Of a DNA stretch of 64,000 nt, positions 16,245 through 45,104 are shown one piece after another. The DNA comes from Vulgatibacter incomptus (GTDB taxonomy: Bacteria; Myxococcota; Myxococcia; Myxococcales; Vulgatibacteraceae), in NCBI RefSeq assembly GCF_001263175.1, contig NZ_CP012332.1, forward strand, positions 3,535,501-3,599,500, in the 5' to 3' direction. The notes beneath the pieces were generated by a model. The model was not told where the DNA came from, searched no databases, and saw only the letters and a list, made by a program, of their open reading frames with translations. The stretch's first letter is position 1. Each line of letters starts with the position of its first letter. The position numbers were made by a program, and so were the translations under genes.

Positions 16245-16523
16245 GCCGAAACGCGTGTTTCGCGTAGGCGGAAAGGCGTCATCGCCCGATCCAGAGATGA
16301 ACTGCAGAAACGAATAAGTGAATTACTGTAGAATGCAGGATACCGGTGTCGAAAACAGGCGTACCACCTGCGACTCAAGAGTGCCCGGACGGATTCCTCC
16401 GTCTTTCGGGTGAAGGCGATCAAGGTCGACCTGCTTTTGCTGCTTGCCTGAAGGCGTGACAACGATGTTCGCTAGCGGATAACCTGGGCCGTTCACGGCA
16501 GGATAGTCCGCGCTTTGGTGCCT

Positions 16524-21780: not shown

Positions 21781-21970
21781 GCACACTTAAAGGCTCGCTA
21801 TCCCTCCTTCGCCGGGTGCCAGGAGGGGTCCCGGACTAAGAATCGCGCCGTCGTCCGTCAGAATCCTCGTGCAGATCGCGTCTTTGAAAAGATTCTCCGC
21901 GCATGGTCTAGAGTGCCCTGCGCCGTCCTCGTTCGAAGAACGACGAACGAGATCCCAGACCGGAGCCCTG

Positions 21971-28632: not shown

Positions 28633-28635
28633 GCG

Positions 28636-31422
28636 ATGATCCGGCGACACTCTTCCAGGCAGCGGCGGATGGACAGGAGCGTGTTGCGCGATCGCCTGCG
28701 CGGCGCAGTCTCCTACGACCGCATCGCGGGCTACTTTCGGTCCAGCCTCTTCGAGGTGGCGGGGGAGGAACTGGAGGCAGTGGACGGCCCCATCCGCATC
28801 GTCTGCAACTCCGACCTCGATCCCGAGGATGTAAAGACGGCGGTCGCCGCGAAGGAGGCTCTGCGCCGGAGCTGGTGTGCCGGCAAGCCGGAGGAGCTGC
28901 CGGACGACGCCAGGCCCCGCATCCGCCGCCTCTACGATCTGCTCACCGCCACGCTCCCAAATGGCGAGCGCAAGCTGCAGGTGAAGGTGCTGCCGGACGC
29001 CGCCTTCGGCCTGGTCCACGGCAAGGCGGGCCTTGTCCGCTACGCCGACGGCCGTGCCACCTCCTTCCTCGGCAGCGTCAACGAGAGCGCCACGGCGTGG
29101 CGGCTCAACTACGAGCTGCTCTGGGAGGACGACGCCCCGGAGGCGATCGCCTGGGTGCAGGAGGAGTTCGACCACCTCTGGCACTCGCCCGATGCCGTCG
29201 ACCTCGCCTGCTGTCCCTTCGTCGAGGCCGATGTTCTGCGCGTGGCGGAGCGGCGGGTGATCGGCGTCGATGAGTGGCGCCTGGATCCCGCGCCGGCGGC
29301 GGTGGCGGTCGAGAGCCCGCTCTACCGCCGCGAGCAGGGCCTGTGGCCCCACCAGAAGTACTTCGCCAACCTATCCCTCGCGCGCCACCGCATGGGCGGC
29401 GCGCGGCTGGTCCTCGCCGACCAGGTGGGCCTGGGCAAGACCATCCAGCTCGCCATGGCCGCGCTACTCATGGCCATGGAAGACGACGGGCCCATCCTCG
29501 TCCTCGCGCCCAAGCCGCTGCTGCGTCAATGGCAGGGCGAACTCCTCGAGCTGTTACAGCTCCCCTCCGCCCGGTGGTCGGGCAGCTCGTGGATCGATGA
29601 GCACGAGATCGAGCATCCCGCCGCTGGCGTCGAGGGCCTACGCTCCTGCCCCCGGCGAATCGGCCTCGTCTCCCAGGGGCTCATCACCCACGGCAACCCG
29701 AAGGTGCAAGCCGCCCTGCTCGCGAGACATTACGTCTGCGTCATCGTCGACGAGGCGCACCGAGCCCGCCGCAGCGAGCTTCCCAAAATCGACGACGGCG
29801 CCGATAGGGTGAACGCCAAGCCCGACCCCAACAACCTGATGCGCTTCCTCCTCGATCTCTCAAGGAAGACGAAGAGCATGCTGCTGGCCACCGCGACGCC
29901 GGTGCAACTCCACCCGGTGGAGGCCTGGGACCTGCTTCGAATTCTCGCTCAGGGGAGCCCCTCCGTCCTTGGGCAGGGGCTCGGTTTCAGCCCCTGGTGG
30001 AAGGCCCACCGCTGCCTCGAGCTGTCCACAGGCGCGGCTCCGATGCCCGAGCATCCGCAGGACGCCTGGAACCATGTGCGCGATCCGCTTCCCTCGCGCG
30101 CCGAGGATCCGATTGTCGCCGAGATCCGCGACGAGCTGGGCCTCCACGACGACCAATGGTCGCTCTTGCCGGAGGACTACCAGCGCCTCCCCGCCGCCCT
30201 CCGCGGCACCCAGGTGGAGCCAGATCTCTTCCCGACCTACGCCCAGAAGCACAACCCGCTCCTGAGATGCATCGTACGCCGCTCGCGCGAGTACCTGGAG
30301 AACACTCTCAACCCCGACACCAAGCAGCCGTGGCTCCAGCCCGTGCGCGTGCGCCTCTTCGGCGAGGGCGACGACGAGGCGCTGGCGCTTACCTCCTACC
30401 TGTCCGACGCCTACGAGGCGGCGGAGGAGTTCACCGAGGCGCTGGGCAAGCGGATTCCCGGCGGCGCCGGCTTCTTCCGCACGCTGCTCCTGCGCCGGCT
30501 CGGCAGCTCCCTCGAGGCTGGCAAACGCACCATCCGAGGACTCCTCGGGATCGAGGGCGGGGTGGCCGCCGACCTCGACGACACCGACGAGGAGTCGGAC
30601 GAAGGGAAGGCGCCCATCGCCGACTCCGACTTCCGCAACTTTTCCGGCGCCGAGCGCAAGGCATTGCTCCGCTGCCTCACGCTCCTCGAGGAGAGCCTGG
30701 AGCAGGACCCCAAGCTGGAGGCGGTGCTCTCCTACCTGCTGGGCACGCGAAAGGGCCTCGCCGAGCCCTGGCGTGACCGTGGGTGTATCCTCTTCTCACA
30801 GTATTTCGACACCGCCTTCTGGATGGGCGAGCGGATCGCCGCGCATCCGGCGTTCGCAGAGGAGGACATCGGCCTCTACGCCGGCTCCGGCCGCTCCGGT
30901 ATCTGGAGCCGCGGCACGTTCCGTCGCTGCGACCGCGAGGTGCTCAAGGCGCAGGTGCGCGACGGTACTTTGCGCCTCTTGCTCGGCACCGACGCCGCCT
31001 CCGAAGGCCTTAACCTTCAGCGCCTCGGTACCCTCATCCACATCGATCTGCCCTGGAACCCCACCCGCCTTGAGCAGCGCAAGGGTCGCATCCAGCGCAT
31101 CGGCCAACGCCACCCCGAGGTCTGGATCGCCAACCTGCGCTACAGCGACTCCGTCGAGGACCGCGTCCACCAGCTCCTCTCCCAGCGCCTCCAGGAGATC
31201 CACACACTCTTCGGCCAAATCCCCGATACCCTCGAAGACGCCTGGGTCCAGGTGGCCCTAGGCCACCGGGCCGAAGCAGCTCGTCTCATCGACCGCGCAA
31301 GCGTCATGCGCCAAAACCCCTTCGATGAAAAGTACAGCCGCGTCGAGGATGCCGACTGGGAGTCCTCCCCCGCCGTCCTTGATCCCATCGAAATCCAGGA
31401 GCGCATGAAGAACGGCTGGTGA
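28636..31422 (+). CDS. PLD-domain SNF2 helicase, last gene of methylase cluster
   Basis: 928 residues. The N-terminal ~220 residues form a phospholipase D-like domain with an H-x-K site (LVHGKAGLV) followed by FLGSVNESATAW, a nuclease-type fold seen in many restriction effectors. The SNF2 helicase core follows: Walker A ADQVGLGKTIQ (about 265), DEAHRARR, a linker of ~300 residues, and a C-terminal lobe with GTDAASEGLNLQ, LPWNPTRLEQRKGR and QRIGQRHPE. It begins three bases after the methylase stop. PLD plus translocase in one chain suggests the cleaving effector of the cluster, with the methylase giving self protection. This is inferred. Confidence 0.88.
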   Translation: MIRRHSSRQRRMDRSVLRDRLRGAVSYDRIAGYFRSSLFEVAGEELEAVDGPIRIVCNSDLDPEDVKTAVAAKEALRRSWCAGKPEELPDDARPRIRRLYDLLTATLPNGERKLQVKVLPDAAFGLVHGKAGLVRYADGRATSFLGSVNESATAWRLNYELLWEDDAPEAIAWVQEEFDHLWHSPDAVDLACCPFVEADVLRVAERRVIGVDEWRLDPAPAAVAVESPLYRREQGLWPHQKYFANLSLARHRMGGARLVLADQVGLGKTIQLAMAALLMAMEDDGPILVLAPKPLLRQWQGELLELLQLPSARWSGSSWIDEHEIEHPAAGVEGLRSCPRRIGLVSQGLITHGNPKVQAALLARHYVCVIVDEAHRARRSELPKIDDGADRVNAKPDPNNLMRFLLDLSRKTKSMLLATATPVQLHPVEAWDLLRILAQGSPSVLGQGLGFSPWWKAHRCLELSTGAAPMPEHPQDAWNHVRDPLPSRAEDPIVAEIRDELGLHDDQWSLLPEDYQRLPAALRGTQVEPDLFPTYAQKHNPLLRCIVRRSREYLENTLNPDTKQPWLQPVRVRLFGEGDDEALALTSYLSDAYEAAEEFTEALGKRIPGGAGFFRTLLLRRLGSSLEAGKRTIRGLLGIEGGVAADLDDTDEESDEGKAPIADSDFRNFSGAERKALLRCLTLLEESLEQDPKLEAVLSYLLGTRKGLAEPWRDRGCILFSQYFDTAFWMGERIAAHPAFAEEDIGLYAGSGRSGIWSRGTFRRCDREVLKAQVRDGTLRLLLGTDAASEGLNLQRLGTLIHIDLPWNPTRLEQRKGRIQRIGQRHPEVWIANLRYSDSVEDRVHQLLSQRLQEIHTLFGQIPDTLEDAWVQVALGHRAEAARLIDRASVMRQNPFDEKYSRVEDADWESSPAVLDPIEIQERMKNGW

Positions 31423-31429
31423 CCGTCCA

Positions 31430-32540
31430 CCCCGATACTCCACGCGGCGGCTGCGGCGCATTCTCGTCATGCCCCGCCCGTAGACCGTGCCCACGAGCGC
31501 ATGCATGCCATACAGAAGTCGGTCGCGCGCGACCGAGCGCAGCACTCCTTCGAGCGACGGACGGAGGGTCGTCCAGTCCCGGTCGAAGCGAGCGATAGGC
31601 TGCTCGTGGGTGGTTCCATGCACGCGGTGATCAGCGCGTCCTATCCACTCAACAAGATGGGCTTCGAGGGCGGCGACAGCGTCGAACGACCTGCCCGCAA
31701 GGGCGATGCATTCGCGTATTTCACGCCGGATTCGGTATTTCCCTTGGTCCGCCCGGCGCGCCTTCGGGGGCACGTCCCAGTCCTTGCACAAGCCGATATA
31801 GCGAGCGGCGAAGATCGCCGTGCCCGCCTCGTGGTTGATCTTTCGCACGAGTGACTTGGGGTTGTCGTGAGCAGTGTCCGCCGCACGCGGCCGAAGTACT
31901 TGAAGGCGGCCGTGAGCCCTTCGAACCAGTCGTCCTGCCGCTCCCACAGGAATGCCTTCACGAAGATGCGCCGCGAAAAGCTAAGAACCGCCACGAAGAG
32001 GTGGACGGGGATCTCCAGATCGCCGATGCGGACGCGCTTCTCACCGAAGTCGATCTGCATCTGGACCTCGCCGACGCGGACGCGCTTCTCACCGAAGTCG
32101 ATCTGCATCTGCTCGCCCGGCGCCATTTCGAACCGGACCGTCGCAAGCTGGGAAGCACGATGCGCTCGCCGGTGCTCTTAGACGGCAGGCTGGGTCCTCC
32201 TCACGTCGGCTTCGATGCCCTCGGCAGCGAGCAGGTCGTGCACCACCGCGGCGGTGCCCTCGGCGGTGCTGTCGAACAGCGCAACCGCCTTGGCCTTCGC
32301 GTCGTCGTCGAGCTTCCGCTGCTTCAGGTAAACCTGAATGCCGGGGGCGGCGCCGTCGCGGATGTACCGCTTGACCGTGTTCCGGGCGACGCCCAGCTCG
32401 GCAGCAATCCGCTTTGCGCCCCAGCCCAACCTAGCAAGGACTCGCATCTGCTGGACGACCTACGCCTCGTTCATCGGCACCTCGGCGACCTGCGGGGGTG
32501 CCACGACTCTTGCCTCCATCTTCACTCGAGCCTCCGTTTC
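31430..32540 (-). pseudogene. istA: Decayed IS21-family istA transposase
   Basis: Fragments of an IS21 IstA read on the minus strand in more than one frame. From high to low coordinates: an N-terminal helix-turn-helix (ARLGWGAKRIAAELGVARNTV, with an in-frame TAG just before MRVLARL at about 32466), a stretch of lost sequence, the start of the DDE domain (MQIDFGEKRVR, VHLFVAVLSFSRRIFV), then a frame change to GTAIFAARYIGLCKDWDV and ALEAHLVEWIGRADHRVHGTTHE. A 48-base tandem duplication near 32031-32126 repeats 16 codons (MQIDFGEKRVR with variants). No istB is present; the remnant ends beside the helicase stop. Confidence 0.82.
32031..32126. repeat. 48-base tandem duplication inside istA remnant
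   Basis: Two copies of a 48-base unit start at 32031 and 32079 (GACGCGCTTCTCACCGAAGT and the same again). They are nearly identical and in frame, duplicating 16 codons of the IstA catalytic domain opening, which no functional IstA has. Confidence 0.8.
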
Positions 32541-32767
32541 AGAGGCCGGGCGAGGGGATCAGAAGTTCTGTCGCAAGGGGGTCAATAGTTCAGACGCTCT
32601 ACACCCGCACTGGCTCGCCCAAGGACCAGGGCCTCGAGCGTGATACCCGGCCGAACGCACCGAAGCGCGCCGAGAGGTCGCTCCGCGACGGCGTCCGCGA
32701 TCCCATCGAGCATGGAGCTCGAGAAACCTGCGCGCCCGCGGGTCCACGGAACCGTGCGAAGCGGGCT

Positions 32768-34143
32768 CCTAGCAGGTTGCTGAAAAACCCTGCGGTCCCC
32801 CGCACCGCAGGGATCGACCCGATAGGATCGCTACCGTAGAATCGCGCGCTCTTGCGGAGGAAGCGATGCGCGGCAAACTCGAGCGGCAGGCGTCGATGCT
32901 CACCCTGATCGGACCGGAACAGCGGGTGCCCAGGGACCACCCGATCCGCCGGATCAAGCTGCTCGCCGACCGTGAGCTCCAGCGCCTCTCGCCCGTCTTC
33001 GAGTCGATGTACAGCGGCACCGGCCGCCCCTCGATCCCGCCCGAGATCATCCTGAAGGCCTGCCTCCTCATCGCGCTCTTCAGCATCCGGAGCGAGCGGC
33101 AGTTCTGCGAGCGCCTCGACTACGACCTGATGTTCCGCTTCTTCCTGGACATGGGCATGACCGAGGAAAGCTTCGATGCCTCGACCTTCTCGAAGAACAA
33201 GGAGCGGCTGATCAGGGCGGATGTCGCGCGCCTCTTCTTTGAGGGCGTGGTCCGCCAGGCTAAGGAGGCGAAGCTGATCTCGGCCGAGCACTTCACGGTC
33301 GACGGCACGCTGATCGAGGCGTGGGCGTCGATGAAGAGCTTCAAGAAGAAGGGCGCGAAGGATAACGAGCCGCCAGACGATCCGGGGAACCCAACCATCG
33401 ATTTCCACGGCGAGAAGCGCGCCAACGCCACGCACGAATCGTCTACCGACCCGGATGCGCGGCTTGCCCGGAAGGGCGCAGGCAAGGAGGCGAAGCTGGC
33501 GCTGTCGGGCCACGTGCTGATGGAGAACCGGAACGGCCTCTGCATCGACATCTCGATCTCGCACGCTGACGGAACTGCCGAACGCCGCGAGGCGCTGCGC
33601 ATGCTGCAGCGTCAGAAGAGAAAAGGCTTCTCGCCAGCTACGCTGGGCGCCGACAAGGGCTACGACACCGCCGACTTCGTGCACGACGTCTTTGTCGAAG
33701 GTGTCGTTCCGCACGTCGCCCGAAAGCGAAAGCACTCGAACGTCGACGCGCGGCAAGCGCGCCAGATTGGGTACCGCCACAGTCAGAGATGCAGGAAGAA
33801 GGTCGAGGAGATCTTCGGCTGGATGAAGACCGTAGGTGGGCTGAGGAAGACCCGCTACCGAGGCGTCGAACGAACCCAGCTCTGCGCCTACTTCACAGGC
33901 GCAGCGTACAACCTGCTGCGTCTCTCGCGGCTGCTCGGGAGCGCGGCGTGAGCGCCGATCCGTGCTGCGCGCCAATGAGCGCCGCCGTGGAGGCATCGCA
34001 TTCGTACGGCGCGAGGCTCGGACCGATTTACGAGCGTGCGGGACGGCGAAATCCATGCGCTCGACCTCTCGTTACCCAGGCACCACCACGGGCCCAGGCA
34101 GCGACTCGCGCCCAAAAACAGAGTTCTTCAGCAACCTGCTAGG
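32768..34143 (+). mobile_element. IS5-family insertion sequence, complete with ends
   Basis: A 1376-base element with a 17-base perfect terminal inverted repeat: CCTAGCAGGTTGCTGAA at 32768-32784 and its complement at 34127-34143. CTAG at each extreme end may be a duplicated or preferred palindromic target, as for several IS5 subgroups, in which case the true ends start at GCAGG. It carries one intact transposase and about 190 bases after it. It was inserted between the istA debris and the orphan gene at 34229. The matched ends and intact reading frame suggest a recent arrival. Confidence 0.85.
32866..33951 (+). CDS. IS5-family transposase (DDE)
   Basis: 361 residues, full length for the group. 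The N-terminal helical domain (DHPIRRIKLLADREL, FCERLDYDLMFRFFLD, FDASTFSKNKERL) is typical of DUF772-containing IS5-like transposases. The catalytic triad is visible: Asp in HFTVDGTLIEAW, Asp in LGADKGYDTADF, and Glu in KKVEEIFGWMK followed by GLRKTRYRG. There are no stops or shifts, so it may be active. The start ATG at 32866 is preceded by GGAGGAAGCG. It lies wholly inside the inverted repeats at 32768 and 34143. Confidence 0.93.
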   Translation: MRGKLERQASMLTLIGPEQRVPRDHPIRRIKLLADRELQRLSPVFESMYSGTGRPSIPPEIILKACLLIALFSIRSERQFCERLDYDLMFRFFLDMGMTEESFDASTFSKNKERLIRADVARLFFEGVVRQAKEAKLISAEHFTVDGTLIEAWASMKSFKKKGAKDNEPPDDPGNPTIDFHGEKRANATHESSTDPDARLARKGAGKEAKLALSGHVLMENRNGLCIDISISHADGTAERREALRMLQRQKRKGFSPATLGADKGYDTADFVHDVFVEGVVPHVARKRKHSNVDARQARQIGYRHSQRCRKKVEEIFGWMKTVGGLRKTRYRGVERTQLCAYFTGAAYNLLRLSRLLGSAA

Positions 34144-34228: not shown

Positions 34229-34978
34229 TCACGGCCACAAAAAGATATCCGCAGCAGGCTTCCTAGCCTTGAGTGTGAACCAAGGGCTCGTAGTCGCATT
34301 CTCGATGATTTGCATTTGCCAGTTGAGTAGGGCCTTCAGTCGCTTTCCCTGTATGGAACGCCAGCGCTGGGGAGGATCCGTAGCACCGGACACGGCCTTC
34401 TCCCACGGGTCCTGAAAGAGCTCACCGAGCGCGAACTCGATTGCCGACATTGGCGTCGGAAACACGTTGGGATGCCTGGGGACCGGAAATCCGTGATCCA
34501 CAGACGCGAATGTGTGGAAGAAGCAGCCCGGAGCGTTCGCGTCTCCAAGCTCCATCTTCCAGCAGGTTATGGGGATGACGACCCCCTCGTCGAAGACGGA
34601 GATCACGGTCGATGCAAGACCGTTAAAACCGATGAGGAGCTCTTCCTTCGCCTTCTTCCCCGGCCGTTTAGGATCCTTCACCTTGTACTTCGCTGCCTTG
34701 ATCTCCCATATCCCGGAAACCTCCGCGAAGATCCGGCGATTTGAAGATTTGTTCGCCGGCTCGAACTCCCCCTCGCTTAAGCGCGTCCGAAGCGGTCGCT
34801 CCCTGGGAATCTCCAATGCCAAGGTACCTCCCTTCTGCGTGACAAGGCCTTGGATTTCACCTGCCAGCTCCTCGAGTTGGAACGACGTCGGGTCGAGAAA
34901 GCTGTCGGACAAGTTCCGCAGTGCTTCTATCTCCGAAAGTAGCTCAGCTGGACGAAAGAGAAGGTTCGCCATGGTCAC
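34229..34978 (-). CDS. Orphan 249-residue protein, last gene of methylase/GHKL operon
   Basis: I do not recognise this family. It starts with GTG 34978, overlapping the stop of the receiver-like gene as GTGA; ATG 34972 is an alternative and GGAGAG lies just ahead of both. The N-terminal ~60 residues are helical (LLSEIEALRNLSDSFLD). A beta-rich core follows with AEVSGIWEIKAAKYKV, where the WEIK could be the E-x-K half of a nuclease site but no convincing partner Asp is seen, then SVFDEGVVIPITCWKMEL and a conserved-looking PGCFFHTFASVDHGFPVPRHPNVFPT. The C-terminus ends WRSIQGKRLKALLNWQ. There is no signal or membrane helix. By position it is the output protein of the operon. Confidence 0.7.
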   Translation of the reverse strand: MTMANLLFRPAELLSEIEALRNLSDSFLDPTSFQLEELAGEIQGLVTQKGGTLALEIPRERPLRTRLSEGEFEPANKSSNRRIFAEVSGIWEIKAAKYKVKDPKRPGKKAKEELLIGFNGLASTVISVFDEGVVIPITCWKMELGDANAPGCFFHTFASVDHGFPVPRHPNVFPTPMSAIEFALGELFQDPWEKAVSGATDPPQRWRSIQGKRLKALLNWQMQIIENATTSPWFTLKARKPAADIFLWP

Positions 34979-36129
34979 TTCTCTCCATCATCGTCGTCAT
35001 CGAACGCGATTCTCTCGCGATCCAGCGGATGGACTACCGCGGCAAACTCTGCGTCGTCTCGGACGCTGGCAATTGTCGCGTACGCCGTGCCTGCATACGC
35101 CGGCCAGAGGTCCGGCACCATACGAACTGCGTCTTCGAGCCTGCAAAGCTCGTCGGCAGGCGAGAGGTCGCGGTCAACGCAAACGACCGGCGATGCGATC
35201 TCAAGGCGTTCCAGTTGAGACTCTGCCCTTTCCTCAAGCTTCTGATGAAACGCCTCTGGATCGCGAGCTCCTTCGGCGCGGATGCCCCAGGCGTATTGCT
35301 CGACGCCGGCCCGCCACCAGCGAGGTCCCATAAAGCCGCGAAGAATGCCGTCGTAGCGACATGCGTTAAGATCGCCCGCGAGCGCGGACTCGCCACGGAA
35401 GACCATACGCAGGGCAGCAGGAGTGATGCGAAGTTGTGCCGCCACCCACTGCTCGGCCCAGAGAAACGTGGGGTACGGCAAGATCGAATGCAGCAACCAT
35501 CGAAGGAACAGTAACCCATTTGTTCCAGCCGAGAACTCGGAAAGCGGCACCTGGCAGAGTACGACGTCGTCGAGCGCACGCGAGCGCCAAAGAACGCGCC
35601 CGTCGAGCCCCAAGAGGCGCTGAAGAGCAGCTTCGACGCCGCCGTGCTCCACGTCCTTCCAAGAGCCGGAGATCGCCCGTACGGCAGCGGCTAGCTCTGT
35701 CGAGCGATCGAAGCGGGTTTTGTCGGATTTGTCGAACACCCATTCCAAGTTGTTGAGACGGGCGACCACATGCGCGGCCCGACTAGTAGTATGAAGTCGG
35801 CTCGAGATATCGCCGATATGTCCTGTGTGAATTGCGAAGGCGGTGTAATCAGCCCCACCTCCGTTCCGGAAATCCGCGTGCTCGCGCAGGACGGCTGCAA
35901 GTGCGAGCCCATTCGATGGCCTAAGGGAGAGCTGTTCGAGCTTCTCTCGTTCCTCCCATTTCTCGATCATGAAATCCATGAGCACCAGATCAGCCCAGTC
36001 GAGATCGTCTGCATCGACATCGTTGGGATGCCTCGGACGTGATGACGCACAACCCTGGAGCCCGAGGGCGTGCGACTTCGCGTCCTCGTCATCTACAACT
36101 AAGATGCGCGGAAGATTCTCATTGGACAT
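34975..36129 (-). CDS. Receiver-like protein with unknown C-terminal domain
   Basis: 384 residues. The N-terminal ~140 residues look like a two-component receiver: RILVVDDEDAKS (acidic pair at 13-14), LVLMDF with the probable phospho-acceptor Asp 52, Thr 102 in FAIHTGHIGD, and Lys 134 in VFDKSDK. A long insert lies between the first strand and the acceptor. The remaining ~240 residues (LGLDGRVLWRSRALDDVVLCQVPL, LRWLLHSILPYPTFLWAEQWVA, RWWRAGVEQYAWGIRAEG) match no DNA-binding output domain I know, so this is not an ordinary transcription factor. It starts at ATG 36129, four bases after the kinase-like gene, and overlaps the next gene. The C-terminus is very acidic (FDDDDDGEK). Confidence 0.78.
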   Translation of the reverse strand: MSNENLPRILVVDDEDAKSHALGLQGCASSRPRHPNDVDADDLDWADLVLMDFMIEKWEEREKLEQLSLRPSNGLALAAVLREHADFRNGGGADYTAFAIHTGHIGDISSRLHTTSRAAHVVARLNNLEWVFDKSDKTRFDRSTELAAAVRAISGSWKDVEHGGVEAALQRLLGLDGRVLWRSRALDDVVLCQVPLSEFSAGTNGLLFLRWLLHSILPYPTFLWAEQWVAAQLRITPAALRMVFRGESALAGDLNACRYDGILRGFMGPRWWRAGVEQYAWGIRAEGARDPEAFHQKLEERAESQLERLEIASPVVCVDRDLSPADELCRLEDAVRMVPDLWPAYAGTAYATIASVRDDAEFAAVVHPLDRERIAFDDDDDGEK

Positions 36130-36133
36130 GGCG

Positions 36134-38482
36134 CTACTTGTCTCCAGGAAACATGAACTTGATAGCGGTGGCAAACCCATTCTCGGGTGCTACGAATGCG
36201 ATTTCAGCGCCGTAGTCGTCGAGCATCCGTCGTGTAATCGGAAGCCCGAGTCCCATGCCTTGGCCGAGCACCGGATCGACCTCAGATGTAGTGGATTCGA
36301 ATGGCCTGAACCAAGCTTCAGCGCGAGCGAGGTCAACGCGAACGCCGGAATTCTGAATCAGCACGTGGACCGTACCGTCCGGATCACTACCGGCTGATGC
36401 TACTATCCGGCCTTTCAGTCCTGCGGCCTTCACGGCGTTACTTAGCAGATTCGTGAACACGGCCGTCAGCTCAGCTGGGAACATCGGCGGCGATTTCAGG
36501 TCGGCACCAATCTGGCTTTCGATACGAATGCCACGCCGCTCAGCAGTATGAGCAAGCAGCCGGCTCGCAACATCGAACCGCTCTGCCAGCCTCTGCCGCG
36601 AGCGGCGCCGGCGCGCGTCAGGGGTCACGATGTCGGTCAGATACGATGCCTCGCGCTCGAGACCTCGGCGAAGGTCGCCAATAGCCTGCAGGATCTTCTT
36701 GAGCTTCTGGCGTTGGTCCCGCATTAGTTGCGGATCCGACGCAAGCTCGTCGAGTGCGTGTTCCACTGCTTGGCTCGCCCCGAGCAATGCTCGAATCTCG
36801 TGAACGAACGCGGACATCTGGGTGCCTACCGACGCGAGGACCCGAAGCAGCGACTGTTCAGAGATCATCTCCTCAGCCGAGTCCGCCTGCGCCCTAATCT
36901 CCTCAAGCGCTTGACTGAGCTTCTTAGCAAGCTCCGCGGCCTCATCAGAACGGGATGCGGTCGCGGCAGCAACCCAGTGTGCGCGAGCTGCCGATAGCGC
37001 CTCGGTTGCACTATCGAGGCTCGCTTTCAGCGTTATTGGGCCGGTGGGTATGCGCCCCGGCGCTGCCGTCGGATCTTGCATCGCAGGACTGGCTGGGGCT
37101 CCGCCTGCGTTTCCGTGGCCTCGCTTGCGAGTCTCGCTACGCGCCTTTCGGTCCGGATAGGACGCTGCAGCTTGAACGCGCGTACACAGGTCGAGACCTG
37201 TCCGCACTAAGACAACCAGATCGTCGTATCCGCCCTCCGGAATAAAGCCTTCACGGTTGACCAACATTCTCAGACTAGGCGCATTATCGTGGGTCAGAAA
37301 CACGCCGCCGAAGTAGTTGTTGTTCGGAAAGCCCATGACAGGCGCGTCTCCGTCGATGGGATCTAGATCATCGAGGTCCCAGTCCTTTAGCGTGTCGAGA
37401 GTTCGTGATCGACGCGTGTAGTCAGAGTCCAGACGCAGCCAGTCGTTATGGGGCTCGCCATACGGAAGAACACGGAAACCCTCCATAAATACTCGGATGC
37501 CGCTAGTTCGGGTTGCCCAGGTCCGCTTGTCACCCTTGGCAGCGAGTGGCCCAACGCGGAGGAAAATTCGCGCATCGAAAAATGGACCAACATCTGGGGC
37601 CGGGTGCACGACCGACGTTCGATATGAAATTGTTCCTGGTCGCTCTCTGAGAGTTCGTTTCGTCGGCGCCACCGCGTACTGGACTGGTTCTCCAACTCGG
37701 GACCGGATTTCAATGACCCAAGCGGCGTGCTCCTCCATCAGTTGCCAGTATTCCTCGCCCGCCGCAAATTCTCCCTCAAGCTTGACACTGAACTCCTGTC
37801 CACTCGCCTCCGCGCCTCGTACCAGTGGTTCATTGAAAACAAGGGGTTCAGCCACGATGGACTTTCTCAGCTGTTTCGTAAGAAACGGCGGGGGCGCGAA
37901 TGACTCAACCTCCGCGAAGAAGCGCGCCCGCTCGGCGGGCGTCCATTTCCGCCGAAGTCGAGACAGACGAAGAGCGGTCCCCGTCTTCGCCTTGGGCGAA
38001 GCGCCATTTTGCATCACGACCACAGCATCGCTGCCTTCAATCTGATCGAGCGTCTCGAAGAGCTCGATTTTGTCCCAGTCGATACGGGCCTGGACATCCG
38101 AGACGGTGCCACCGTTCGCTACGCTAATGCTCTGTACCTCGAGCAAACGGGCCAGCTTGTGCGCGGCCAGACGCCCGATTCCCTTTGCCCCTGTGTACCG
38201 CCGCTTGAGGCGCCCCGACAAACGCAGGCCGTCGTCTTTCATTCGCGACGCGACCCGCAAGAAACCTTGCTCGAACTGGTCTGGAGTCATTCCAGACCCA
38301 TTATCGGTAATTAGAATGACGCCTCTGTCGGGGTCGTTCAGCCGTTGGCCGACCACAATAACCTCGGTCGCATCGGCATCGTAGGAATTCTTGATTAACT
38401 CGATGAGGGCAGTCGAGTCGCGCCCAACCAGAAGTTCGCCGAGCTCGCGAAAGAGATGGGTGTCGATTGTGAAGCTGGCCAT
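36134..38482 (-). CDS. Protein with two GHKL ATPase domains and a histidine-kinase H-box
   Basis: 782 residues. The N-terminal domain is an HSP90/MutL-type GHKL ATPase: N-box ELIKNSYDADATE (28-40), DNGSGM (60-65), GAKGIGRLAAHKLA (98-111), then a transducer-like region to about 440. A Pro/Ala linker and coiled coil lead to a kinase-like half: H-box MSAFVHEIRALLG with His 561, then a second GHKL fold with N-box FTNLLSNAVKA (676-686), F-box WFRPFEST, and GQGMGLGLPI (740-749). The second domain has QNSG where the usual D-x-G-x-G is expected, so its ATP chemistry may be altered. There are no membrane helices: a cytosolic sensor. It sits between methylase and receiver-like genes, one base from the former. 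Confidence 0.85.
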   Translation of the reverse strand: MASFTIDTHLFRELGELLVGRDSTALIELIKNSYDADATEVIVVGQRLNDPDRGVILITDNGSGMTPDQFEQGFLRVASRMKDDGLRLSGRLKRRYTGAKGIGRLAAHKLARLLEVQSISVANGGTVSDVQARIDWDKIELFETLDQIEGSDAVVVMQNGASPKAKTGTALRLSRLRRKWTPAERARFFAEVESFAPPPFLTKQLRKSIVAEPLVFNEPLVRGAEASGQEFSVKLEGEFAAGEEYWQLMEEHAAWVIEIRSRVGEPVQYAVAPTKRTLRERPGTISYRTSVVHPAPDVGPFFDARIFLRVGPLAAKGDKRTWATRTSGIRVFMEGFRVLPYGEPHNDWLRLDSDYTRRSRTLDTLKDWDLDDLDPIDGDAPVMGFPNNNYFGGVFLTHDNAPSLRMLVNREGFIPEGGYDDLVVLVRTGLDLCTRVQAAASYPDRKARSETRKRGHGNAGGAPASPAMQDPTAAPGRIPTGPITLKASLDSATEALSAARAHWVAAATASRSDEAAELAKKLSQALEEIRAQADSAEEMISEQSLLRVLASVGTQMSAFVHEIRALLGASQAVEHALDELASDPQLMRDQRQKLKKILQAIGDLRRGLEREASYLTDIVTPDARRRRSRQRLAERFDVASRLLAHTAERRGIRIESQIGADLKSPPMFPAELTAVFTNLLSNAVKAAGLKGRIVASAGSDPDGTVHVLIQNSGVRVDLARAEAWFRPFESTTSEVDPVLGQGMGLGLPITRRMLDDYGAEIAFVAPENGFATAIKFMFPGDK

Positions 38483-38483
38483 T

Positions 38484-40190
38484 TCACAACTCCTCGCCCT
38501 TGGGTATCCGTTGACGGGTCAGCTCCGTGAGTGAATTACGCATCAGGTCGATCTTCGCGCGCGATACTCCGATCCCACGGCGAAGGACGAGGTCGTCAGC
38601 GATGGCACGGGCCGCCGGCTCGTCGCCGCAGCGCAGGGCTTCGTCCACATGTTGGAACGCTCTGATCGCGTCTAGGGCGATCGGCACCGGTAGCTTACAA
38701 AGGGCCGTCAGGTCGAGCTTCAGCACGCCACCTCCATACCTCCGCCCGTTCAACTCCGACCATAGCGCCACGAACGTCGTCGCGAAACCGATCGTCACGA
38801 CCTCCGGAGGTACGTCACACGCCGCGTTCCACCTTGCGGCATAGAGCGCGTTCGTACAGCGAAAGGTTCCCCGGTTGAGCACCAGCAAGGGAGGCCCTAG
38901 ACGCGTCGATGTCACGAAGGCATCTGGCCTCTCCGAAAGATCGACCCGATACCACGGCTCGCGCTTGGAACATTTGTAGCGCTTGTCGACCCCCGCCTTC
39001 AGTCCATCCTCGATCCATCGCTGAACACCCGGCGCGGGCTCCATTGCCGCGGTCGGACGAACGAGGAACGCCCGGGCCCCCGACTCGGCAGCCGCCTCGT
39101 GGTCTTCCGGAGTGAACTCCAGCCCGGCCAGCCACCTTGTTCGAGAGAGAATCGGAACGCGAGCGCTAGCAGGAATACCAATGTCAACCAACTCTTCTTC
39201 AGAGCGAATGAAATGACTGTTCGCCCCGGTTACGATTCCAATTTGGGGCGTCGCCAGCTCTCCGAATCTTACCGTTTGCCTCGACGACTCGATCGTTCCC
39301 ATGACCCGGAGAGCCTCGGCTGCGATTCGCCGCCCGTTTGGCAGGGTCGTGCCCCGAGGCAAGGGGGCATTTCCCTTCAAAACCGCACTCAACTCGTCTG
39401 CGGTATCGACCGAGAGCACTTGCAGGGAACCACGGCATCCGAATCCTTCCGCGGCGATCAGGACTACAGGCTCGTCGGTACCATCAAACAGTCGCTGGCG
39501 AAGATGAATCAAGCGCACCCGCTCGAAGCGCTGCTCGAGTGCAGCACGGACCGCCATCGCATAGTCAGCTTGGAGGATTGCTTCTGGGACCAACATTCCG
39601 AGCCTGCCGCTCGGCTCCAAGAAGGCGAGCGCATGCAAAACGAAATACGCCCAGAGACTTGCCGTTTCGGGGAGTCGGTGTCCGCTTTCCTCGGCTATGC
39701 GACGCGCCAATGCTCGTCGCTCATCCTTGAGCCAGTGGTGTCGCACGTAGGGCGGGTTTCCGACGATCGCGTGGAATGGCGCTCCGGGTAGTTCGGCCGG
39801 CTGGACAGCGAGAAAGTCCTTGAACACAACATTGGCTTCGACCAAGTCGGAACAATCGTGAACAAATCGAGCGCACGTCTCGTCGATGTCGACTCCAAAG
39901 ACGTTCCGTCCAGGCTGCCGGCGCCCCATCCCCTTGAGAATGGATGCAGCGGCCTGCATGAATGCGCATCCGCCGAAGCTCGGATCGAGGATATTCCCAT
40001 TGGCGTCCGCGATAGCCCATTGAGCGATACATACAGCAACATCATCTGGTGTGTAGTAAGCTCCGAGGAACCGCCGTTGCGGAACGGATAGGCCGTTAAT
40101 CTGCAGCAAACCGGCCTCCTCCGTTTCGCCGAGGGGGCCGCCGTCCTGGAACTGCTCCGAATTCGCGCTTATCGCCAGGTTCCTCGCCAT
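38484..40190 (-). CDS. N6-adenine DNA methyltransferase (Eco57I/TaqI-like), no nuclease domain
   Basis: 568 residues. The methyltransferase core has FLGAYYTPDDVA, a variant motif I (ILDPSFGGCAFMQAA, about 68-82), the acidic VFGVDIDET, and the catalytic motif VGNPPYVRHHWL (NPPY near 145-148). The C-terminal ~300 residues resemble a TaqI-type target-recognition region (GIVTGANSHFI, WYRVDLSERP, LVLNRGTFRCTNAL). No N-terminal or C-terminal nuclease is fused, so it would only modify DNA. The start is the second of two tandem ATGs, which has the better spacing from GGAGGG. It is the first gene of a four-gene minus-strand operon ending at 34229 and probably provides the self mark. Confidence 0.88.
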   Translation of the reverse strand: MARNLAISANSEQFQDGGPLGETEEAGLLQINGLSVPQRRFLGAYYTPDDVAVCIAQWAIADANGNILDPSFGGCAFMQAAASILKGMGRRQPGRNVFGVDIDETCARFVHDCSDLVEANVVFKDFLAVQPAELPGAPFHAIVGNPPYVRHHWLKDERRALARRIAEESGHRLPETASLWAYFVLHALAFLEPSGRLGMLVPEAILQADYAMAVRAALEQRFERVRLIHLRQRLFDGTDEPVVLIAAEGFGCRGSLQVLSVDTADELSAVLKGNAPLPRGTTLPNGRRIAAEALRVMGTIESSRQTVRFGELATPQIGIVTGANSHFIRSEEELVDIGIPASARVPILSRTRWLAGLEFTPEDHEAAAESGARAFLVRPTAAMEPAPGVQRWIEDGLKAGVDKRYKCSKREPWYRVDLSERPDAFVTSTRLGPPLLVLNRGTFRCTNALYAARWNAACDVPPEVVTIGFATTFVALWSELNGRRYGGGVLKLDLTALCKLPVPIALDAIRAFQHVDEALRCGDEPAARAIADDLVLRRGIGVSRAKIDLMRNSLTELTRQRIPKGEEL

Positions 40191-40193
40191 CAT

Positions 40194-40465
40194 CGCCCTC
40201 CGAGTTTCTGGTAGCCCGGAAGGGTAAATGCCGTGGCGCTGAGGGATGGGGCGAGCGGCACTTTAGCGTCCCCTTGTCCTCGTTGCCGGCATCGGAATGC
40301 TCCCGCGGGTCGGGAGGTGTTCTCGGGGACCCACGCCGCCCTTGGGGCGGGTCCTATCACGATCAGTTAGGTGCGCTCAAGATGGACGTCGTCCTTGTTT
40401 GGACGGTTTTCTCAGCATGATTCCAGTTCGGGAGGTTCAGATCGCCCCCCGCGGCCGTCCGGTCT
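40194..40465. other. Divergent intergenic region
   Basis: Space between the methyltransferase operon start and the ECF41-type promoter. It should contain the promoter for the minus-strand operon, but I cannot pick a convincing -35/-10 pair by eye. No gene is supported here. Confidence 0.4.
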
Positions 40466-40492
40466 TGTCACAACGGATCACCGGCCGGTGTC
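40466..40492 (+). promoter_or_regulatory. ECF41-type sigma promoter, copy 1
   Basis: TGTCACA at 40466-40472, a 16-base spacer, and TGTC at 40489-40492. The known ECF41 consensus is TGTCACA, 16 bases, CGTC, so this differs at one base. It lies about 50 bases ahead of the decarboxylase/sigma pair, implying that the sigma factor drives its own operon. The same arrangement is repeated at 45024. Confidence 0.8.
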
Positions 40493-40541
40493 CCCATGTC
40501 GGAACCAAGAGAAGCCCCACAAGGGCAACCCAGGAGGCGAC

Positions 40542-41123
40542 ATGGCGAGCAAAACTCGAATCCCGAAGGCCAAGCTGACCGGACCCTACGGCGCGATGGT
40601 CAAATGGATGTCCCGCAGGACGTTCGGCGACGTTCTCGAGCCGGCCGAGGTGGCCTGGCACAACCGGAAGGTGCTGAACTTCACCTTCAACGTCGGCCGC
40701 ATGGCGTCGAGGTGGGACCAGTGCGACCAAAACCTGAAGTCTTTCGCCCACATGGCGGTGGCCAGCCTGGTCGGCTGCAGGTTCTGCCTGGACCTCGGAT
40801 ACTTCCAGGCCCACAACGAGGGGCTCGACCTGACCAAGGCGCGTGAGGTGCCCATGTGGCGCGAATCCCGCGTCTTCACGCCGCTGGAGCGCGAGGTCAT
40901 GGAGTACGCCGAGGCGATGACGCACACGCCGCCCACCGTAACCGACGAGATGTCGGCCCGGCTGCTCGAGGAGCTCGGCGCGCCAGCGCTGGTGGAGCTC
41001 ACCGCGTTCATCGCGCTGGCGAACCTGTACACTCGCACCAACACCGCGCTCGGCGTCGAGTCCCAGGGGTTCGCGAAGGCCTGTGGGCTCCAGCCTCTCG
41101 CTATGGCCTCGGCAGCGACATGA
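40542..41123 (+). CDS. Carboxymuconolactone decarboxylase-family protein, copy 1
   Basis: 193 residues of the AhpD/CMD fold. The redox-type motif is SLVGCRFCLDLGYFQAHNEG (CxxC followed by His), typical of family members that act as peroxidase-like or ring-opening enzymes; the actual substrate is unknown. The start ATG follows CAGGAGGCGAC. The stop overlaps the ECF41 sigma start (ATGA). Pairing of CMD, oxidoreductase or epimerase genes with ECF41 sigma factors is the known regulon pattern. A close paralogue lies at 45105; the two differ by scattered substitutions only. Confidence 0.9.
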   Translation: MASKTRIPKAKLTGPYGAMVKWMSRRTFGDVLEPAEVAWHNRKVLNFTFNVGRMASRWDQCDQNLKSFAHMAVASLVGCRFCLDLGYFQAHNEGLDLTKAREVPMWRESRVFTPLEREVMEYAEAMTHTPPTVTDEMSARLLEELGAPALVELTAFIALANLYTRTNTALGVESQGFAKACGLQPLAMASAAT

Positions 41124-41992
41124 AGAACGCCCCCTTCGTCACCCACCGCAGCCTCCTCTTCACCGTCGCCTACGAGATGCTCGGCTCGGCCGCCGACGCC
41201 GAGGACGTGGTGCAAGAGGCCTGGCTGCGGTGGGCGGACACCGACCAGGCAGCCGTGCAGGAGCCGCGGGCCTATCTGATCCAGATCGTCACCCGCCAGG
41301 CGCTGAACCGGCTACGCACCCTGTCCCGCCGACGCGAGGACTACGTCGGCGATTGGCTGCCCGAACCGGTGCTGACCAGCCCGGACGTGGGCGAGGACCT
41401 CGAGCTCGCCGAGAGCATCTCGATGGCGATGCTCACCGTGCTCGAGACGCTCGGCCCGACGGAACGGGCGGTCTTCGTGCTGCGCGAGGTCTTCCAGGCG
41501 CCGTACGAGGAGATCGCCGAGGCCATCGGCAAGACGCCGGCAGCGGTGCGGCAGATCGCGCACCGGGCGCGGGATCATGTCGCCGCCCGCCGGCCGCGGC
41601 TGCGCGTGGACCACACGGAGCAGCAGGCCGCCGTCGAGAGGTTCCTGGCCGCGATCCGCACGGGCGATGTGCAGGGCCTGCTCGAGGTCCTGGCACCGGA
41701 CGTCGTGATGGTCACCGACAGCGGTGGTCTGGTGCCGGCCGCGCCGAAGCCGATCGTGGGCGCGGACAAGCTGGCCGCCTTCCTCATCGGCGTGACCGCC
41801 AACGCGTCCGGGAGGCACGCGGGCACTGCGGTGTGGATCAACGGCGCACCAGCCGCTCGGATCGACGTCGACGGCGAGGTCGCCGCCGCGCTCAGCCTGA
41901 CCGTCGAGAACGGCCGGATCACCCGGATCTACACGATGAGGAACCCGCACAAGCTGGCGCGGCTCGACGCGGAGGCCACCCTCGCTCGGTAG
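41120..41992 (+). CDS. ECF41-family RNA polymerase sigma factor, copy 1
   Basis: 290 residues. Sigma region 2 is in SLLFTVAYEMLGSAADAEDVVQE with WLRWADTD; region 4 in LGPTERAVFVLREVF and YEEIAEAIGKTPAAVRQIAHRAR. The extra ~110-residue C-terminal SnoaL-like domain (QAAVERFLAAIRTGD, APDVVMVTDSGG, MRNPHKLARL) defines the ECF41 group, where it controls sigma activity in place of an anti-sigma factor. There is no anti-sigma gene nearby, as expected. It is translationally coupled to the CMD gene. The promoter at 40466 fits its own group consensus, so it is probably autoregulated. Confidence 0.93.
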   Translation: MKNAPFVTHRSLLFTVAYEMLGSAADAEDVVQEAWLRWADTDQAAVQEPRAYLIQIVTRQALNRLRTLSRRREDYVGDWLPEPVLTSPDVGEDLELAESISMAMLTVLETLGPTERAVFVLREVFQAPYEEIAEAIGKTPAAVRQIAHRARDHVAARRPRLRVDHTEQQAAVERFLAAIRTGDVQGLLEVLAPDVVMVTDSGGLVPAAPKPIVGADKLAAFLIGVTANASGRHAGTAVWINGAPAARIDVDGEVAAALSLTVENGRITRIYTMRNPHKLARLDAEATLAR

Positions 41993-42793: not shown

Positions 42794-43813
42794 ATGAAAA
42801 TCCTACCCGTGCTCTCACTCCTCGTTGCGATCCTCGCCGCAGGCTGCGGCACGTCCGATTCCGGTCCCGACCAGCAGGACGGAGCTGGCGGTTCCGCAGG
42901 ATCTGCTGGTTCCGCTGGATCTGCCGGATCCGGTGGAACCGATCGAACCGGAGGTACAGGTGGGAAGGGGGGCGACGGCGGTTCCGACGGTGAGATCCCC
43001 ACGGAGGCCGAGGTCGTCTGCCGTCTCTGGAAAAATGGGCACGTCGAGAACGAGACGGTCCCATGGGTCGCCGGGGCCGACAAATGCGATCACGGCACGC
43101 TGAGCGAGGTTGCGATCGAGAATACGCTGCGGCGGATCAACATGTTCCGCGCGCTCTCCGGGCTGCCGCCCGTGACCGAGAATCGCGACCAGCGCGAGCA
43201 ACAGCAGGACTGCGCCGTGCTGATGAATGTGAACAACTTTCTCACCCACGAGCCACCGGAGAGCTTTGCTTGCTGGACGCAGGCGGGCGCGAATGGCGCG
43301 GGGTCGAGCAACCTCGCTCTGGGCTACGAGACGCCCGGACTCGCGATCCACGGTCTCATGGCCGACGTCGGCGTGGAGAGCCTGGGCCACCGTCGGTGGC
43401 TACTGGGCTACTCCCTCGGCAAGGTGGGCATCGGCTTCGCCGGCAAGGCGACCTGCGTCAGCGTCTTCGACAACACGGGGCGGGCCGATCGCGCCTGGAC
43501 CGCCTTCCCGCCCGCCGGGCCTACGCCGATTGGAATGCTGAGCGATAGGTGGGGAAGTCTCGCCGCGTGGTCGTTCCACCCGAAAGACAAGATCGATGGC
43601 GCCCAGGTCTCGATGCAGAAGTTGCCCGACTTGGCCGAGGTCCCGATCGAAAGATCCTGGACCCGGAGTGACGGCGCCCAGATCCCCGACGCCATCGCTT
43701 GGCAGCCGCGGCGTCGCTTCGTGGCGGGTGAGACCTATCGGATCACCATCACCCGCCCCTCCAAGGAGGCGGTGACCTACGACGTGGAGCTGGTGGACTG
43801 CGACGGCAATTGA
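42794..43813 (+). CDS. CAP-like lipoprotein, copy 1
   Basis: 339 residues. The lipoprotein signal MKILPVLSLLVAILAAGC is followed by a Gly/Ser/Ala-rich spacer of about 45 residues, then a domain resembling the CAP/SCP superfamily: INMFRALSGLPPVTENRDQREQ, a His-bearing FLTHEPPESFACW, SSNLALGY, and LGHRRWLLGYSLGKVGIGF. A C-terminal beta segment (YRITITRPSKE) ends ELVDCDGN. It is likely an outer-surface protein; activity is unknown. Copies 2 and 3 lie at 43893 and 46587, with the same layout and four Cys positions kept. Confidence 0.82.
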   Translation: MKILPVLSLLVAILAAGCGTSDSGPDQQDGAGGSAGSAGSAGSAGSGGTDRTGGTGGKGGDGGSDGEIPTEAEVVCRLWKNGHVENETVPWVAGADKCDHGTLSEVAIENTLRRINMFRALSGLPPVTENRDQREQQQDCAVLMNVNNFLTHEPPESFACWTQAGANGAGSSNLALGYETPGLAIHGLMADVGVESLGHRRWLLGYSLGKVGIGFAGKATCVSVFDNTGRADRAWTAFPPAGPTPIGMLSDRWGSLAAWSFHPKDKIDGAQVSMQKLPDLAEVPIERSWTRSDGAQIPDAIAWQPRRRFVAGETYRITITRPSKEAVTYDVELVDCDGN

Positions 43814-43892: not shown

Positions 43893-44891
43893 ATGCGAAC
43901 TCTACCCGTGCTCTCGATCCTCGTTGCGCTGCTCGCCGCAGGCTGCGGCGCGTCCGAATCCGATCCCGATCGGCAGAATGGCACTGGCGGTTCCGCAGGA
44001 TCCGATGGATCAGGTGGATCAAGTGGAACCGGCGGTTCCGGTGGGACGGGGGGCGGCGGCGGTTCCGGTGGAAGGGGCCCCACGGAGAAAGAGACGGTCT
44101 GCCGCCTCTGGAACGAAGGGCACATCCAGAACGAGCGGGAACCTTGGATCGCCGGCGCCGACATCTGCGATCACGGCACGCTGAGCGAAGTGGCGATCGA
44201 GGACACGCTGCGGCGGATCAACATGTTCCGCGCCCTCTCCGGGCTGCCGCCGGTGACCGAGAATCTCGAGCAGCGCGAGCAGGAGCAGGCCTGCGCCGTG
44301 CTGATGAACGCGAACAGAAGTATCTCCCACTATCCGCCGCAAAGCTGGAACTGCTGGACGGAGGAGGCCGCGTGGGGCGCGGCTTCGAGCAACCTCGCGC
44401 TGGGCTTCAAACTGCCCGGCAACGCGATCGACGCCCTGATGGGCGACACCGGCATAGACAGCGTGGGCCACCGGCGGTGGCTGCTGGGCTACTTCCTCGG
44501 CAAGGTGGGCATCGGCTTCGCCGGCAAGTCCGCCTGCGTCAGCGTCTTCGACAACACGGGGCAAACCGACCGCGAGTGGACCGCCTACCCGCCCCCCGGG
44601 CCTGCGCCGCTGCCCATGGTGCGCGACGTTCAGTGGGGTCCCGTAGCTTGGTCGTTCCACCCGAGAGACAAGATCGCGGGCGCCCAGGTCTCGATGCAGA
44701 GGTTGCCCGACTTGGAGGAGGTCGAGGTCGAAAAAACCTCGATCCAGGCTGACGGCGGCGGGATCCCCGACGCCATCGTCTGGAAGCCGCTTCGCGTCGC
44801 GGCGGGTGAATCCTATCGGATCACCATCACCCGCCCCTCGAAGGAGCCGCTGACCTACGACGTCGAAGTGGTGGACTGCGACGGTATTTGA
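43893..44891 (+). CDS. CAP-like lipoprotein, copy 2
   Basis: 332 residues, the same architecture as copy 1: lipobox LAAGC, Gly/Ser spacer (GGSAGSDGSGGSSGTGG), CAP-like core with INMFRALSGLPPV, SISHYPPQSWNCW, SVGHRRWLLGYFLGKVGIGF, and the C-terminal YRITITRPSKE. Many synonymous and some amino-acid changes separate it from copies 1 and 3, so the duplication is not fresh. The start ATG 43893 is preceded by GGAGCCTGAAAC. Function is unknown; the surface location is inferred from the signal. Confidence 0.82.
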   Translation: MRTLPVLSILVALLAAGCGASESDPDRQNGTGGSAGSDGSGGSSGTGGSGGTGGGGGSGGRGPTEKETVCRLWNEGHIQNEREPWIAGADICDHGTLSEVAIEDTLRRINMFRALSGLPPVTENLEQREQEQACAVLMNANRSISHYPPQSWNCWTEEAAWGAASSNLALGFKLPGNAIDALMGDTGIDSVGHRRWLLGYFLGKVGIGFAGKSACVSVFDNTGQTDREWTAYPPPGPAPLPMVRDVQWGPVAWSFHPRDKIAGAQVSMQRLPDLEEVEVEKTSIQADGGGIPDAIVWKPLRVAAGESYRITITRPSKEPLTYDVEVVDCDGI

Positions 44892-45050: not shown

Positions 45051-45104
45051 CCCATGTCGAACCCGAGAGAAGCCCCAACTAACGGGGGCAACCCAGGAGG
45101 CGAC

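What the first reader, a model, noticed from the sequence alone, without database searches (positions are those of the whole stretch)
34229..40190. Candidate undescribed four-gene system: adenine methylase, double-GHKL kinase-like protein, receiver-like protein and orphan output protein
The sequence shows four minus-strand genes with overlaps or gaps of 1-4 bases: an N6-adenine methyltransferase without nuclease, a 782-residue protein with an HSP90/MutL-type GHKL domain, a histidine-kinase H-box and a second GHKL domain, a receiver-like protein whose output half is not DNA-binding, and a 249-residue orphan. A methylase coupled to phosphorelay-like parts in a defence island suggests that DNA modification state or infection is sensed by ATPase/phosphotransfer and passed to an effector. 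It matches no restriction-modification, BREX, DISARM or Detocs gene order that I know.
Basis: partly seen in the sequence, partly recalled or inferred. Interest (0 to 1): 0.8.

Follow-up and report, generated by a model that had tools for sequence, protein, structure and literature searches.

The report
Methylase-linked kinase–receiver–DUF2290-like defence cassette
Four neighbouring genes (a DNA-marking enzyme, a double-ATPase sensor kinase, a receiver protein and a protein of a phage-defence family) travel together across many bacterial and some archaeal phyla and probably form a restriction-like anti-phage system; a related kinase–receiver pair was known, but this four-gene version and the identity of its fourth protein seem not to have been described.

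Summary
In detail: four tightly spaced minus-strand genes encode an Eco57I-type N6-adenine methylase, a 782-aa GHKL–S5–H-box–HATPase protein, a true receiver protein with an unknown output half, and a 249-aa orphan. The set is conserved far beyond close relatives. In 85 testable loci holding the kinase, the next gene is the same receiver family in 83. The gene after that belongs to the orphan family in 52 of 78 sequences, the window included, mostly beside an N6 methylase. All four occur in Gemmatimonadota, Acidobacteriota, Verrucomicrobiota, Planctomycetota, Chloroflexota, Pseudomonadota, on plasmids and in viral contigs.

It is not wholly undescribed. Iyer 2008 placed paraMORC GHKL proteins in restriction–modification loci, and Bellieny-Rabelo 2021 described a kinase/receiver pair linked mainly to cytosine methylases. 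The window lies in a sister clade, fails both of their Pfam models, and carries an adenine methylase plus the fourth gene.

New here: the orphan is a divergent DUF2290 relative (hhalign probability 93–95%; shuffled controls at most 0.7%); DUF2290 belongs to the tested anti-T7 Helicase+DUF2290 system. Its confident model (pLDDT 92) matches no PDB fold.

Best reading: a restriction-like defence cassette in which the clamp-like kinase gates the effector. The defence role is likely; phosphotransfer is unproven.

The parts
38484..40193 (-). N6-adenine DNA methyltransferase, Eco57I/TaqI type, with M.Eco57I C-terminal domain and no nuclease domain; motif IV NPPY
   Evidence: PADLOC MTase_II 9e-82; EcoR124II M subunit 1.6e-5
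36134..38482 (-). paraMORC-type sensor kinase: N-terminal GHKL + S5 ATPase (about 1-440), H-box His561, C-terminal HATPase_c (671-778) with G1 Asp replaced by Asn711
   Evidence: (N-terminus like BbrUII/HgiDII)
34975..36129 (-). Receiver protein: receiver domain (D13, D14, phosphoacceptor D52, K134, numbered from ATG 36129) plus an output half of about 200 aa with no known fold match
34229..34978 (-). DUF2290-like fourth protein, proposed effector; conserved [DE]143, H155, P167, R168 (window: E143, H155, P167, R168)
31258..33951 (.). Insertion-sequence remnants (rve/IS21-like fragment; DUF772/DDE_Tnp_1 transposase 32866-33951 +) just downstream; boundary of the cassette, not part of it

Best explanation
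A mobile restriction-like anti-phage cassette. (1) The Eco57I-type methylase marks host DNA at a specific adenine site [domain shown; activity inferred]. (2) The GHKL-S5 N-terminus of the kinase acts as an ATP-driven, DNA-engaging clamp like MutL/MORC and detects DNA that lacks the mark or is otherwise foreign [intact ATPase motifs shown; sensing inferred]. (3) The clamp state is passed through the H-box helices (His561) and C-terminal HATPase to the receiver protein (Asp52) [residues shown; phosphotransfer inferred, and possibly reduced in this clade]. (4) The receiver's output half releases or activates the DUF2290-like protein, the effector, which attacks nucleic acid or shuts the cell down [slot and homology shown; activity inferred]. 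Probability that it is a restriction-like defence unit about 0.8; that phosphotransfer gates a DUF2290-like effector about 0.4.
For: Four-gene conservation across phyla with shuffled gene order: MTase first, last or divergent. Every one of the 17 loci in the window's own clade has an N6-type MTase beside the kinase. The orphan family goes with N6/N4 methylases in 44 of 51 loci and with C5 in 1. The orphan family is homologous to DUF2290: hhalign prob 93-95%, E 5e-8 to 3e-7 for one comparison, best of 60 column shuffles 0.7%. DUF2290 is in a tested anti-T7 system (PMC9122126). In two plasmid relatives (Bacteroides, Deinococcus) the slot after the receiver holds an HNH endonuclease and the receiver lacks its output half. 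Invariant N-terminal ATPase motifs and H-box His in 89/89, receiver Asp in 83/83. Defence-island and mobile contexts.
Against: No nuclease motif is recognised in the DUF2290-like protein and no PDB fold matches. The kinase G1 Asp is Asn in the window's clade. In cytosine-methylase relatives the same slot can hold an HhH-GPD glycosylase, so the slot is not always an effector. No experiment exists for any member that I found.
Confidence: 0.55

Rival explanations
1. The N-terminal MORC/MutL-like ATPase does the work as a DNA clamp or looping machine; the kinase-receiver part is a degenerate docking and dimerisation module and no phosphate is transferred.
For: G1-box Asp replaced by Asn in all members of the window's clade; N-terminal GHKL motifs invariant 89/89; paraMORC proposals of DNA looping in R-M systems (PMC2292703); a GHKL ATPase needed together with a nuclease for defence is shown for VcSduA (PMC12137116).
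Against: H-box His 89/89, receiver phosphoacceptor Asp 83/83 and acidic pair kept across phyla; most other members keep the G1 Asp (68 of 89).
Confidence: 0.22
2. A genuine two-component regulator that controls transcription of the methylase and neighbouring restriction genes, with no direct part in restriction.
For: Bellieny-Rabelo 2021 proposed signalling cascades controlling R-M systems; the receiver has an output half.
Against: The output half has no DNA-binding fold match of its own; receiver-only forms of about 210 aa exist beside HNH nucleases; the fourth gene would be left unexplained.
Confidence: 0.12
3. The DUF2290-like protein is not the effector but an adaptor or sensor; the receiver output half, or a host enzyme, is the effector.
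For: No nuclease motif; conserved [RH]x[DE] / H / R pattern could bind a ligand; DUF2290 works beside an SF1 helicase in another system, with unknown role.
Against: The slot is taken by an HNH nuclease in two plasmid relatives with a receiver-only partner, and by an unrelated protein with a PIN-like acidic pattern in actinobacterial members of the window's own clade (PIN identity not confirmed).
Confidence: 0.2
4. An epigenetic cassette (orphan methylase with regulator) without a defence role.
For: No experimental defence data; no classical restriction enzyme in the operon.
Against: Sporadic cross-phylum spread, plasmid and viral-contig carriage, defence neighbours, DUF2290 link.
Confidence: 0.08

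Closest known systems
HEF_HK / Response_reg_2 pair (Bellieny-Rabelo et al. 2021, PMC8011034)
   Same: HATPase_c_3 + H-box + HATPase_c kinase next to a receiver-like protein, beside DNA methylases and R-M genes, widely and patchily distributed
   Different: Window proteins fail PF19191 and PF19192; methylase is N6 not mainly C5; has the DUF2290-like fourth gene; kinase tree puts a true HEF_HK with the C5 clade, the window in its sister clade
paraMORC GHKL ATPases of R-M loci (Iyer et al. 2008, PMC2292703) and the Shedu-type VcSduA (PMC12137116)
   Same: N-terminal GHKL + S5 ATPase in R-M context; GHKL ATPase paired with an effector
   Different: No fused PD-(D/E)xK or DUF4263 nuclease; a histidine-kinase tail and a separate receiver protein instead
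Helicase + DUF2290 anti-phage system (Rousset et al. 2022, PMC9122126)
   Same: Shares the DUF2290-type protein (profile homology)
   Different: No SF1 helicase; DUF2290-like protein is coupled to methylase, kinase and receiver
BbrUII/HgiDII-type restriction enzymes
   Same: Related N-terminal ATPase domain (NCBIfam 1.4e-20 over residues 4-184, far below the family cut-off)
   Different: No C-terminal restriction domain; kinase core instead
Detocs three-gene phosphorelay defence system (from memory, not tested)
   Same: Two-component-like parts used in phage defence
   Different: No DNA methylase or DUF2290-like protein is recalled in Detocs

Membership tests
HEF_HK / Response_reg_2 two-component-like pair | Kinase matches HEF_HK (PF19191) | tested here: not met
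   No hit for the window protein at E<=1; only 5 of 30 relatives, best E 0.0011
HEF_HK / Response_reg_2 two-component-like pair | Receiver protein matches Response_reg_2 (PF19192) | tested here: not met
   PF19192 is absent from the families found for the 61 members; window genome no hit
HEF_HK / Response_reg_2 two-component-like pair | Kinase and receiver genes adjacent, in R-M loci | tested here: met
   83 of 85 loci; methylases in most loci
HEF_HK / Response_reg_2 two-component-like pair | Falls in the same kinase clade | tested here: not met
   V. penaeicida HEF_HK groups with the C5 clade (SH-aLRT 96-99), window in the other clade (99); quick tree, long branch for HEF_HK
paraMORC (GHKL ATPase of R-M systems) | GHKL domain with intact ATP motifs followed by S5-like region, in R-M context | tested here: met
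   HATPase_c_3 hit, motifs 89/89; S5 region inferred from the conserved GFRVxPYG...DDW...REG stretch
Type II restriction-modification | DNA methyltransferase with Type II-like architecture | tested here: met
Type II restriction-modification | Cognate restriction endonuclease | tested here: inconclusive
   None recognised in the operon; DUF2290-like protein is the candidate
Helicase + DUF2290 | DUF2290 protein over Pfam cut-off | tested here: not met
   No single-sequence Pfam hit for the window protein; homology only by profile comparison
Helicase + DUF2290 | Adjacent SF1 helicase | tested here: not met
   No helicase in the four-gene unit or adjacent to it in the window
BREX / DISARM / Hma | System-specific core proteins (BrxC/PglZ, DrmA/DrmB, HmaA/HmaC) within the unit | tested here: not met
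   PADLOC finds methylase-type hits for the MTase and only weak or REase-type ATPase hits for the kinase; none for the other two
Detocs | DtcABC gene set | not tested
   No Detocs model was compared; difference recalled from memory only

The most novel reading that the evidence does not exclude
A restriction-like immune system in which DNA-modification status is read by a MORC/MutL-type ATPase clamp and relayed by histidine-to-aspartate phosphotransfer to a receiver that switches on a DUF2290-class effector, so that DUF2290 is an effector shared by different sensors (an SF1 helicase in one system, a methylase-guided phosphorelay in the other).
Probability: 0.3. Interest if true: 0.85.

Novelty: new variant of a known kind. 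Interest (0 to 1): 0.63.

Why it matters
Restriction systems are normally thought to decide directly at the DNA. A cassette that puts a clamp ATPase, a histidine kinase and a receiver between the methylation mark and the effector would join two fields (restriction and two-component signalling) and may give a bacterial counterpart to MORC proteins, whose role in eukaryotic silencing is unclear. The DUF2290 link turns an orphan into a testable effector family and gives the unexplained Helicase+DUF2290 system a second, independent context.

Tried and rejected
Standard BREX, DISARM or Hma system: rejected. Direct membership in HEF_HK/Response_reg_2: rejected by Pfam and tree. Degenerate or truncated operon cut by the downstream insertion sequences: rejected, because relatives such as L021 and L022 have the same four genes and then opposite-strand genes. 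Known fold for the DUF2290-like protein: none in PDB or BFVD. Slot-4 protein of L011 and L029-L031 as a PIN nuclease: motif pattern only; Pfam, a DUF3368 search, profile comparison with eight PIN domains and a PDB profile search did not confirm it. Paralogue in the same genome: none beyond ordinary kinases. Neighbour-enrichment test with PADLOC: neighbours include Ssp/Dnd-like, Lamassu, AbiE, DRT, Avs and methylase genes, control regions mainly kinase-type hits; suggestive only, because the control comes from other genomes. A first attempt to pull PIN proteins out of loci by longest ORF failed and was redone from match coordinates.
Full report
Observation. The four ORFs are present as described, on the minus strand, with a 1-bp gap, a 4-bp gap and a 4-bp overlap between successive genes. 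The methylase carries N6_Mtase, Eco57I and M_Eco57I_C domains and no nuclease; the 782-aa protein has HATPase_c_3 at its N-terminus and HATPase_c at its C-terminus; the other two have no Pfam family. The N-terminal ATPase is nearest, among curated families, to BbrUII/HgiDII-type restriction enzymes, that is, the paraMORC class of Iyer et al. (PMC2292703). The receiver protein probably starts at 36129.

Conservation. tblastn against plasmids found the same gene order in Clavibacter and Paraburkholderia, and in Rhizobium with the methylase divergent; another member of the window's order has kinase–receiver–orphan–methylase. Across these and the plasmid loci, iterative HMM searches put the gene after the kinase into one receiver family in 83 of 85 cases, and the next gene into the orphan's family in 52 of 78 sequences, the window included. 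Three more slot-4 proteins fell just outside the threshold (E 0.004-0.006: L094, L078, L040) and show the same HxQ/H pattern by eye. The orphan family sits beside N6/N4 methylases in 44 of 51 loci and beside a C5 methylase in one; loci without it more often carry C5 methylases. A maximum-likelihood kinase tree splits into a C5-rich clade and an N6 clade; phylum labels need 37 changes over 21 phyla, consistent with wide horizontal transfer, although metagenome bins can be contaminated (L020 is titled Slackia but is likely a mis-binned contig). Viral contigs hold 71 relatives of the kinase, 48 with the receiver and 14 with the orphan.

What the fourth protein is. No member of the family has a confident Pfam hit, but one touched DUF2290 at E 0.04. 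DUF2290 proteins fetched from other genomes sit beside an SF1 helicase, as in the Helicase+DUF2290 anti-T7 system of Rousset et al. (PMC9122126). Profile-profile comparison aligns the orphan family with DUF2290 over about 60 columns at probability 93.4% and 94.8% in my own run. Sixty column-shuffled controls reached at most 0.7%, and reversed or unrelated profiles 0.5% or less. A DUF2290 HMM ranked slot-4 proteins in the top six among 1,160 ORFs, though the individual E-values are weak (0.0025 and above). The shared core is [RH]-x-[DE], a histidine (H155 of the orphan, 52/52), an R-[IF]-P element and a F..F...NF helix. AlphaFold2 gives the orphan a confident structure (pLDDT 92, pTM 0.89), with long antiparallel strands between helical ends, but nothing in PDB or BFVD matches with E below 0.04. 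So the family is placed, but its chemistry is not known.

Receiver and kinase. The receiver half matches solved receiver domains with probability 1.00; the phosphoacceptor Asp is 83/83 and the acidic pair nearly so. The output half has no fold match of its own. In relatives where an HNH nuclease occupies the fourth slot, the receiver is only about 210 aa long and lacks that half, which suggests that output half and fourth protein form a functional unit. The kinase keeps all N-terminal ATPase residues and the H-box His in 89/89. However, the G1-box Asp of the C-terminal kinase domain is Asn in the window's clade. In other GHKL proteins this Asp contacts adenine (established knowledge), so kinase activity here may be reduced; the clamp-only rival must stay open.

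Mechanism. Shown: gene composition, conservation, homology of each part, invariant residues, mobile and defence-island context. Inferred: self-marking by the methylase, foreign-DNA detection by the GHKL–S5 clamp, relay from His561 to Asp52, and effector action of the DUF2290-like protein. The strongest indirect support for an effector role is that HNH nucleases take the same slot in two plasmid relatives, and that DUF2290 proteins recur in a separate phage-defence system. In actinobacterial members of the window's own clade (L011, L029-L031) the slot holds an unrelated protein whose acidic-residue spacing looks PIN-like, but no profile confirmed that. A counter-example is the HhH-GPD glycosylase in the slot in two C5-methylase loci, which may serve repair of deaminated 5-methylcytosine.

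Comparison with what is known. The HEF_HK/Response_reg_2 pair (PMC8011034) is the closest described system and has the same logic, but the window's proteins match neither Pfam model, belong to the sister clade, use an N6 methylase and add the DUF2290-like gene. Literature searches on paraMORC, HEF_HK, DUF2290 and phage-defence kinases found no description of this quartet; the library holds open-licence papers only, so an unseen report or a REBASE entry is possible.

Surroundings. Downstream lie insertion-sequence genes, then a DUF499–DUF1156 methylase–PLD helicase set, now classed as a BREX-related/Hma-type defence system, and a GmrSD_N protein. The cassette therefore sits in a defence island.

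Limits. Gene calls in relatives are longest-ORF chains, methylase types were assigned by motif, the trees are quick ones with SH-aLRT only, and no coordinates of the models were available to check whether E143, H155 and R168 lie together.

Verdict. It is a new variant of a known kind (restriction-linked kinase–receiver modules) with a newly recognised DUF2290-like component.

Noticed in passing
window 21869-31422 (+): DUF499 ATPase, DUF1156 N6-methylase and PLD-helicase in a row: a DUF499-centred BREX-related (Hma-like) defence system next to the cassette; the methylase ORF at 26221 matches its PADLOC model only from model position 174, so its N-terminus may be missing or in another frame upstream.
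   Followed up: partly
window 16515-18371 (+): GmrSD_N (DUF262) protein of 618 aa, E 4.9e-30, another defence-type gene in the same island.
   Followed up: no
window 40371-41992 and 45054-46567 (+): Two similar tandem units of a carboxymuconolactone-decarboxylase-like protein followed by a sigma-factor-like protein, and between them two similar CAP-domain proteins with G/S-rich N-terminal stretches (42794-43813, 43893-44891): local duplications.
   Followed up: no
window 36134-38482 (-), residue 711: G1-box Asp to Asn in the kinase domain throughout the window's clade while the H-box His and the receiver Asp are kept.
   Followed up: partly
L049:11347-12009, L050:4990-5625: In C5-methylase relatives the gene after the receiver is an HhH-GPD DNA glycosylase, perhaps a functional stand-in for Vsr repair of deaminated 5mC.
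   Followed up: no
L011:12526-13107, L029:11388-12086, L030:11427-12122, L031:11629-12327: Actinobacterial members of the window's own clade replace the DUF2290-like protein by an unrelated protein of about 190-230 aa with DTGPL...E...GE...E spacing that looks PIN-like; not confirmed.
   Followed up: partly
L179:4974-11026 and L041: One Vibrio penaeicida genome carries both types: a true HEF_HK/Response_reg_2 locus with C5 methylase, and an N6-methylase/DUF2290-like locus.
   Followed up: partly
L108 (viral contig): A putative viral contig carries methylase, kinase, receiver and DUF2290-like genes followed by C5 methylase, Vsr-like and DUF262-like genes (the last three read from sequence).
   Followed up: no
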